64,000 nucleotides of DNA from Trissonchulus latispiculum. Taxonomy: Eukaryota; Nematoda; Enoplea; Enoplida; Ironidae. The position numbers and the translations under genes are program-made. Position 1 is the first letter of the stretch; each line of letters opens with the position of its first letter. Below are positions 34,361 through 52,010 of the stretch, piece after piece. Below the pieces are notes generated by a model. The model saw only the letters and a program-made list of their open reading frames with translations, was not told where the DNA came from and searched no databases. The stretch spans positions 34,101 to 98,100 of the forward strand of contig JASAND010021176.1 in NCBI GenBank assembly GCA_030248195.1, given 5' to 3'.

Positions 34361-34421
34361 ATGAATAGCTTTCTATGCATTCTAGTTTTTGGCCTTTTGC
34401 TTCCTGGACTGTCACTTTCAG
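34361..34421 (+). CDS. Gene B signal-peptide exon
   Basis: Encodes MNSFLCILVFGLLLPGLSLS plus one base of a glycine/aspartate codon, then a GTAAAA donor (phase 1). It is a typical secretory signal. The exon is 61 nt, identical in length and phase to the gene C signal exon at 58026-58086. Confidence 0.75.

Positions 34422-52010: not shown

What the first reader, a model, noticed from the sequence alone, without database searches (positions are those of the whole stretch)
34361..52010. Receptor with a C-type lectin head, a ~1000-residue threonine stalk and a class B-like 7TM core
Seen in sequence: signal exon, CTLD exons ending ICQN|G in phase 1, a stalk exon beginning in the matching phase, and 7TM exons with class B-like signatures (CW..HW..GP; G..IW.FHT....K.R), all in one orientation with consistent phases. 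Known: adhesion receptors combine extracellular domains with 7TM, normally through a GAIN domain and GPS cleavage site. Here neither is evident; instead there is an unrecognised 79-residue module. Inference: a lectin-on-a-mucin-stalk receptor family, possibly for recognition of glycans on cells or microbes.
Basis: partly seen in the sequence, partly recalled or inferred. Interest (0 to 1): 0.88.

Follow-up and report, generated by a model that had tools for sequence, protein, structure and literature searches.

The report
Lectin-headed, threonine-stalked seven-helix receptor family
An animal genome carries a family of cell-surface receptors that appear to hold a sugar-binding head out on a long threonine rod, above a signalling core that lacks the usual self-cutting piece and has a different, so far unrecognised, conserved domain in its place.

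Summary
The window holds three tandem genes. Gene B (head upstream of the window, tail at 13789-22424) can be read as 12 GT-AG exons giving one 1167-residue frame: signal peptide, C-type lectin domain, ~600-residue threonine stalk, 79-residue module, 7TM. The finding's gene (A, 34361-52010) matches it exon by exon, but the two halves of its third lectin exon lie in different frames, so that copy is broken in this assembly. Gene C is cut off by the contig end. Pfam puts Lectin_C and 7tm_2 a few bits above cut-off. The module is under purifying selection (A-B dN/dS 0.13) and spans 27 matches in this 734 Mb genome; in six genes a matching lectin exon lies upstream of it on the same strand. It matched no Pfam, PDB or protein-database entry and is not a GPS by sequence, although the same tests find GPS exons in this genome's ordinary adhesion receptors. 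I read it as an adhesion-type (class B) receptor variant without a GPS, for glycan recognition at a distance. Function is inferred; there is no transcript evidence.

The parts
34361..34421 (+). gene A: signal-peptide exon (phase 1 out)
   Evidence: 61 nt, same length as the signal exons of genes B and C
35690..35816 (+). gene A: lectin exon 1
   Evidence: 127 nt as in B; tblastn to B 56% and C 60% identity
36060..36143 (+). gene A: lectin exon 2
   Evidence: 84 nt as in B
36869..36998 (+). gene A: lectin exon 3, frame broken inside the exon; QPD motif; ends ICQN|G phase 1
   Evidence: 130 nt against 131 in B; two halves in different frames; read with X at the break Lectin_C is 29.4 bits, against 25.1 with the second frame alone
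40324..43393 (+). gene A: hinge GTNRNCPSLSPC and threonine stalk
   Evidence: open frame, 0 stops in the 320-codon non-repeat tail; hinge conserved in B, C15719 and C9063
44056..44297 (+). gene A: probable further Ser/Thr-rich exon (phase 2 in, phase 1 out), not settled
   Evidence: conserved with C8866 (47% over 77 columns, E 2e-9), acceptor and GTATTA donor conserved, the four gaps before the donor are multiples of three; the corresponding frame is not kept in B
44735..45045 (+). gene A: Ser/Thr-rich linker exon; 5' boundary 44735 if the exon before it is used, 44775 if the stalk joins it directly
   Evidence: both starts fit the phases; its last 65 codons are 46% identical to B
45843..46079 (+). 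gene A: 79-residue module
   Evidence: 75% identical to B, dN/dS 0.13; 27 module-spanning matches in the genome, A and B included (my count)
48730..48857 (+). gene A: linker GPPPLPSVINGVSR and TM1
   Evidence: GT-AG, in frame; linker conserved in C9063 and C15719
49949..50048 (+). gene A: TM2
   Evidence: GT-AG, in frame
50450..50670 (+). gene A: TM3-TM4
   Evidence: 7tm_2 match
50860..51024 (+). gene A: TM5 (CWTQF..HW..GP)
   Evidence: 91% identical to B
51773..52010 (+). gene A: TM6-TM7, short tail and stop
   Evidence: 96% identical to B
13789..15624 (+). gene B: hinge and threonine stalk (3' boundary uncertain); B's signal and lectin exons lie upstream of the window at contig 20045-22742
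   Evidence: single-step changes in the repeat fall at third positions in 84 of 120 codons; gene model
17012..17187 (+). gene B: Ser/Thr linker exon (5' boundary uncertain)
   Evidence: one in-frame GT-AG path among those possible
17397..17633 (+). gene B: 79-residue module
18535..22424 (+). gene B: 7TM exons 18535-18662, 20294-20393, 20869-21089, 21293-21457, 22187-22424
   Evidence: same lengths as A, open, 7tm_2 above cut-off
58026..58086 (+). gene C: signal exon
   Evidence: 61 nt, phase 1
61156..61282 (+). gene C: lectin exon 1; no further exon of C was found before the contig end
   Evidence: 127 nt, 60% identical to A; contig ends at window 64000

Best explanation
This is a tandem family of adhesion-type (class B-like) 7TM receptors. 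A C-type lectin head of the QPD (galactose/GalNAc) type sits on a 600-1000-residue Thr-rich, probably O-glycosylated rod, followed by a family-specific ~80-residue juxtamembrane domain and a conserved linker (GPPP...(I/V)NGV.R.VV) into TM1. Most likely working: the head binds glycans on microbes, particles or other cells well outside the glycocalyx; the rod passes engagement or tension to the juxtamembrane domain, which gates the 7TM allosterically, without GPS autoproteolysis or release of the ectodomain. Shown: architecture in DNA, gene family, purifying selection, absence of a recognisable GPS, conserved module. Inferred: expression, glycosylation, ligand, gating, G-protein coupling.
For: Gene B: one 1167-aa frame over 12 GT-AG exons. 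Lectin_C 24.7 bits and 7tm_2 23.0 bits, both above cut-off; the best PDB match of B's head is CLEC4F, E 3.4e-6, aligned across its QPDN. A and B module and 7TM exon lengths identical, dN/dS 0.13-0.24. Seven hydropathy peaks. Stalk frame constraint: open tails, and third-position excess 84 of 120 in B, p 3e-16. Family: 115 matches to module+7TM in this genome; by my count of that listing 17 of the 23 module contigs also carry a later 7TM match. Lectin exons on 10 contigs, 5 of which also carry the module, in six genes with the lectin upstream on the same strand; expected overlap 0.01 contigs. C15719: lectin exon ends in phase 1, its hinge exon starts in phase 1, then Thr-rich frame, module, 7TM. 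GPS absent with working controls.
Against: No transcripts. The finding's own copy is frame-broken. The Pfam calls are only about 2-7 bits above cut-off, and the 7tm_2 match ends within TM5. By single sequence the best PDB match of the 7TM is a secretin-type receptor (VIP receptor 1, E 0.058), not an adhesion one. The Ca2+/sugar site is imperfect: the WND position reads VDD (A) or VED (B). Gene A's repeat shows no third-position excess (81 of 232, p 0.33), and an antisense frame of B's stalk tail is also open. 18 of 23 module-bearing contigs gave no match to this lectin type, and 5 of 10 lectin contigs gave no module match; C8866 and C15719 each carry a further lectin match without a module after it. 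C12213 has lectin and module but no 7TM match listed. The exons between stalk and module are not settled and differ between A and B.
Confidence: 0.68

Rival explanations
1. Two adjacent genes: a secreted C-type lectin gene followed by a separate mucin-stalked 7TM gene, joined only by reading exons together.
For: No transcript spans the junction; PMC4967905 (passages) shows a Lectin_C fusion in lancelets that was a gene-prediction error; in gene B the junction intron is 25 kb; some lectin matches have no module on their contig.
Against: The stalk exon has no ATG near its start (its frame opens FSGTNRNC in A) and begins at an acceptor in phase 1, matching ICQN|G. The same phase-1 junction and hinge motif recur in A, B and C15719. 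Order and strand recur on five contigs. I did not search systematically for a signal exon just before the stalk.
Confidence: 0.12
2. The module is a highly diverged GAIN/GPS end, so this is an ordinary adhesion GPCR that lost its cysteines.
For: It sits where a GPS would; its last residues (..SCEHLVFV) recall C.HLT.F; one C and the L three residues after it are invariant in 20 of 20 copies.
Against: Profile-profile comparison with GPS: probability 0.3%, 44 of 200 column shuffles score as well; two real GPS exons from the same genome score 99.5 and 97.9%. The GPS model gives -1.8 bits on A. The H of HL is R in gene B. No GPS or GAIN family among Pfam hits at E <= 1 of 20 of 20 copies.
Confidence: 0.15
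3. The locus is a decaying array of pseudogenes and the reading frames are relics.
For: Gene A is frame-broken; gene C has a LINE reverse transcriptase in intron 1; B's lectin-stalk intron holds a 4-kb inverted-repeat element.
Against: Gene B is open throughout; dN/dS 0.13-0.24 between A and B; many other copies of the module and last exon are listed without stops.
Confidence: 0.08

Closest known systems
Adhesion GPCRs (class B2), for example the EGF-TM7/ADGRE group with a mucin-like stalk (stalk recalled)
   Same: Adhesive head, Ser/Thr-rich stalk, 7tm_2 core; a two-sequence PDB profile of the 7TM gives only ADGRL4, E 0.24, weak
   Different: CTLD head instead of EGF; no GPS; a family-specific ~80-residue domain in its place; TM6-TM7 fall outside the Pfam match; single-sequence search ranks the secretin-type VIP receptor 1 first
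Sponge adhesion GPCRs without GPS (12 of 40 in Amphimedon; PMC4302439, passages)
   Same: 7tm_2 receptors lacking a GPS
   Different: some of those were described as having short N-termini; here the ectodomain is about 880 (B) to 1300 (A) residues
CTLD proteins of the ctenophore Mnemiopsis whose figure legend lists GPS, HormR and 7TM (PMC11797021, section 6 part 1), and 'GPRX' with Lectin_C, 7tm_2 and DUF3497 (PMC8687355, one table passage)
   Same: C-type lectin domain recorded together with class B 7TM
   Different: GPS or DUF3497 (the GAIN domain, recalled) is listed with them; no threonine stalk or this module is mentioned in the parts seen; the figure itself was not available
Polycystin-1 family
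   Same: CTLD and GPCR-like signalling
   Different: GAIN domain and 11 TM (abstracts in the listings); here seven hydropathy peaks and no GPS
Gal-type C-type lectin receptors (CLEC4F)
   Same: QPD motif and overall CTLD match
   Different: CLEC4F is single-pass (recalled); here the CTLD is fused to a 7TM

Membership tests
Adhesion GPCR (class B2) | 7tm_2 transmembrane core | tested here: met
   23.0-24.7 bits against a cut-off of 20.6 in A and B; 23.7 and 23.1 in TM3-TM7 pieces of C9063 and C3769; the match ends within TM5
Adhesion GPCR (class B2) | long N-terminus with an adhesive domain | tested here: met
   Lectin_C above cut-off in A (break read as X) and B, with stalk in one frame in B
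Adhesion GPCR (class B2) | GPS motif | tested here: not met
   no match in the module, in 1584 ORFs of at least 25 codons in the window (best 8.7 bits, E 0.18) or in 20 module copies; controls positive
Adhesion GPCR (class B2) | GAIN domain fold | tested here: inconclusive
   no Pfam GAIN match; the two-sequence AlphaFold model is too poor to judge (pLDDT 47.7)
Adhesion GPCR (class B2) | autoproteolysis and G-protein signalling | not testable with these tools
   needs protein experiments
C-type lectin domain | Lectin_C profile | tested here: met
   24.7 bits (B), 29.4 bits (A, break read as X), cut-off 22.6
Carbohydrate-binding C-type lectin | EPN/QPD and WND Ca2+-site motifs (recalled) | tested here: inconclusive
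   QPD in A, B and C15719; the WND position is VDD in A, VED in B, VDD in C15719
Secretin-type class B1 receptor | N-terminal hormone-receptor (HRM) domain | tested here: not met
   no HRM match in the pieces scanned, although VIP receptor 1 is the best single-sequence PDB match of the 7TM
Polycystin-1 family | 11 TM, GPS | tested here: not met
   seven hydropathy peaks, no GPS

The most novel reading that the evidence does not exclude
A new branch of class B receptors in which a novel juxtamembrane domain has replaced the self-cleaving GAIN/GPS, giving non-cleavable, mechanically gated lectin receptors. Because the head is of the Gal/GalNAc (QPD) type and the stalk is a dense O-GalNAc acceptor, heads could bind the stalks of neighbouring receptors or cells, making a homophilic lectin-mucin recognition system encoded in one protein and diversified in tandem arrays.
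Probability: 0.18. Interest if true: 0.85.

Novelty: new variant of a known kind. Interest (0 to 1): 0.64.

Why it matters
Adhesion receptors are usually explained through the GAIN/GPS: cleavage, shedding, tethered agonist. A large natural family with the same overall plan but a different, conserved domain in that place is a test case for how such receptors can be switched without cleavage. The family also couples a lectin directly to a 7TM over a very long rod, which bears on how animals without adaptive immunity sense microbial or self glycans. Homogenisation of the signalling end (94% identity between A and B) beside diverged heads (55-61%) resembles families that vary recognition while keeping one output.

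Tried and rejected
GPS in the module: rejected. My first hhalign run used a wrong option and was repeated. The longer signal exon (34361-34556, same phase) was left open. Relatives elsewhere: none in the protein collection for the 362-aa piece or the 20-member module profile, none in viral contigs with a 133-aa TM5-TM7 piece or in genome contigs with the 362-aa piece; these collections are mainly prokaryotic or viral, so absence says little about other animals. The PDB profile search of the module gave only chance-like hits (best E 0.025, OspA). AlphaFold of the module from two sequences was too poor to use, so no fold search was run. Organism: not identified; a Lig_chan-like ORF near one 7tm_2 hit (below cut-off) is only a weak hint. 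Genome-wide counts of the GPS and Lectin_C families did not complete.

Full report
WHAT IS THERE. The window lies on contig C14371 of an unnamed 734 Mb assembly, at contig 34101-98100, and ends at the contig end; introns, repeats and gene content say animal. It holds three tandem genes of one family on the + strand. Gene A is the finding (34361-52010). Gene B has its module and 7TM exons at 17397-22424 and its stalk at 13789. The 34 kb upstream of the window supplied B's head: signal exon at contig 20045-20105, lectin exons 20446-20572, 20939-21022 and 22612-22742. Gene C begins at 58026 (signal exon) and 61156 (lectin exon 1); nothing more of it was found before the contig ends.

GENE B IS THE CLEAN EXAMPLE. 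Its twelve exons, internal boundaries all AG and GT, give one frame of 1167 residues and a stop: signal peptide, C-type lectin domain, hinge GTNPNCPALSPC, threonine stalk, Ser/Thr linker, module, linker, 7TM. The stalk-linker boundary is one of several possible and is not settled. Pfam scores Lectin_C 24.7 bits (cut-off 22.6) and 7tm_2 23.0 bits (cut-off 20.6). The nearest PDB chain to the head is CLEC4F, E 3.4e-6, with QPDN aligned to QPDN.

GENE A, THE FINDING, IS BROKEN IN ONE EXON. Exon lengths match B for the signal (61), lectin 1 (127), lectin 2 (84), module (237) and 7TM exons (128, 100, 221, 165, 238). Lectin exon 3 is 130 nt against 131. Its first half (ENYACLWEL) and second half (GQPDDTGSC...ICQN) lie in different frames, and an in-frame TGA precedes the second half. 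With X at the break, Lectin_C scores 29.4 bits, against 25.1 with the second frame alone, and gene B and contig C15719 carry the corresponding stretch unbroken (NYYCLWGDDQPD, YSCLWEDGQPDD). So 'consistent phases' fails at this place. Whether it is a real mutation or an assembly error cannot be told here. Between stalk and module, A probably has an exon (44056-44297) that B does not keep: it is 47% identical to a frame in C8866, with splice sites conserved and the gaps before the donor in multiples of three; phases also allow the stalk to join 44775-45045 directly.

IS IT MORE THAN CHANCE? The ACT repeat alone would leave frames open, so I tested the non-repeat tails: 0 stops in 320 (A) and 179 (B) codons, against means of 18 and 10 in shuffles, none of 2000 open for each; against this, one antisense frame of B's tail is also stop-free. 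In B's repeat 84 of 120 single-step changes are at third positions (p 3e-16; repeats may be copied, so the p is too small); in A 81 of 232, no excess. Module plus 7TM between A and B: dN/dS 0.19 overall, 0.13 module, 0.24 TM1-TM4, 0.13 TM5-TM7. The spliced core has seven hydropathy peaks.

A FAMILY, NOT A ONE-OFF. Searching the genome with module+7TM gave 115 matches (113 of 438 candidates scored, so a lower bound). By my count of that listing 27 matches span the module, on 23 contigs, A and B included, and 17 of the 23 contigs also carry a later 7TM match. The lectin query gave 21 matches on 10 contigs. Five of these contigs (C14371, C8866, C12213, C15719, C9063) also carry the module, and in six genes (two on C14371) the lectin lies upstream of it on the same strand. 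The overlap expected by chance is 0.01 contigs (hypergeometric p 2e-13; it ignores contig length and shared descent). Against a strict coupling: five lectin contigs have no module match, 18 module contigs have no match to this lectin, C8866 (11924-14960) and C15719 (2396-2536) each have a further lectin match with no module match after it, and C12213 has no 7TM match listed. Heads of the other branches are unknown. In C15719 the lectin exon ends in phase 1 and the hinge exon starts in phase 1, as in A and B. C8866 has an 1158-codon Thr-rich frame (55% Thr) with a similar hinge; C9063 has the hinge GNNPNCPPLSPC.

THE MODULE. Twenty copies (A3: A, B and 18 of the 20 fetched loci) share ten invariant positions, among them G11, W44, G60, P67, C73 and L76. 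No Pfam family is above cut-off (20 of 20 scanned; best single E 0.021), PDB hits are at chance level, and the protein-database search found no relative. It is not a GPS by sequence: profile comparison probability 0.3%, 44 of 200 column shuffles as good, while two GPS exons from ordinary adhesion receptors of the same genome score 99.5 and 97.9% and are found by Pfam GPS at 67.9 and 40.5 bits. The linker between module and TM1 (GPPP...NGV.R.VV) is conserved even in the distant members C9063 and C15719. Whether the fold is GAIN-like is open: the two-sequence AlphaFold model has pLDDT 47.7.

HOW IT MOST LIKELY WORKS (inference). QPD in A, B and C15719 predicts a galactose/GalNAc-type lectin (motif rule recalled), with an imperfect Ca2+ site. 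A Thr-rich chain of 600-1000 residues would be heavily O-glycosylated and rod-like, on the order of 100-250 nm (recalled spacing for mucins). Binding at the tip would pull on, or reposition, the juxtamembrane module and linker and so gate the 7TM, without GPS cleavage. Amino-acid identity between A and B rises from head to tail: lectin exon 1 55%, second half of lectin exon 3 61%, module 75%, TM1-TM4 78%, TM5-TM7 94%. The A and B 3' ends are 86% identical over 3.5 kb including an intron and flank, which suggests gene conversion of the signalling end.

WHAT IS KNOWN. Class B receptors with lectin heads are on record: PMC11797021 lists GPS, HormR and 7TM in the legend for Mnemiopsis CTLD proteins (section 6 part 1 read; figure not seen), and PMC8687355 tabulates Lectin_C with 7tm_2 and DUF3497 for one group (one passage). 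GPS-less adhesion receptors are on record in Amphimedon (12 of 40; PMC4302439, passages). PMC4967905 (passages) warns that lectin fusions can be gene-prediction errors, which is why the recurrence on five contigs matters. Which class B branch the 7TM belongs to is not settled by sequence: the single-sequence PDB search ranks VIP receptor 1 first (E 0.058) and ADGRE5 lower (E 2); the two-sequence profile gives only ADGRL4 (E 0.24). Eight literature searches, seen as listings, with term look-ups in nine papers, showed no description of this CTLD-threonine stalk-module-7TM plan; only open-licence papers are held.

VERDICT. Architecture well supported in gene B and at family level; the finding's own copy is frame-broken; mechanism and ligand are inference. 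New variant of a known kind (adhesion-type 7TM), with an unrecognised domain where the GPS would be. Under the membership rule I do not file it as a proven adhesion GPCR, because the GPS test failed; it plausibly works like one.

Noticed in passing
8611-12678: A ~4-kb element in B's lectin-stalk intron with near-identical inverted arms (8611-8887/12402-12678 at 98.9%; 8833-10161/10947-12273 at 99.2%), enclosing a 192-residue ORF with one C2H2 zinc finger (10433-11008); probably a recent DNA transposon.
   Followed up: partly
32913-33890: 291-bp inverted arms (98.6%) around a Cys-rich ORF with a weak Tesmin/TSO1 CXC match (E 0.057); a small foldback-like element.
   Followed up: partly
58295-58963: LINE-type reverse transcriptase ORF (RVT_1, E 1.2e-17) in intron 1 of gene C.
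   Followed up: partly
21281-24772 and 50848-54342: A and B are 86% identical over 3.5 kb covering TM5-TM7, the last intron and 3' flank, while most upstream intron sequence gave no match; looks like gene conversion or a replaced 3' end.
   Followed up: partly
47932-48350: A ~420-bp nearly pure TG repeat (99% matches) in the intron before TM1 of gene A.
   Followed up: no
27624-29022: Satellite-like array with a ~100-bp unit, about 14 copies.
   Followed up: no
36709-36782: tRNA-Cys-like sequence on the minus strand inside an intron of gene A; real tRNA gene or SINE not decided.
   Followed up: no
L005:11-787: A divergent ligand-gated-channel-like ORF (Lig_chan E 0.0014, below cut-off) near a 7tm_2 match in the same genome; a weak hint at ionotropic-receptor-like genes.
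   Followed up: no
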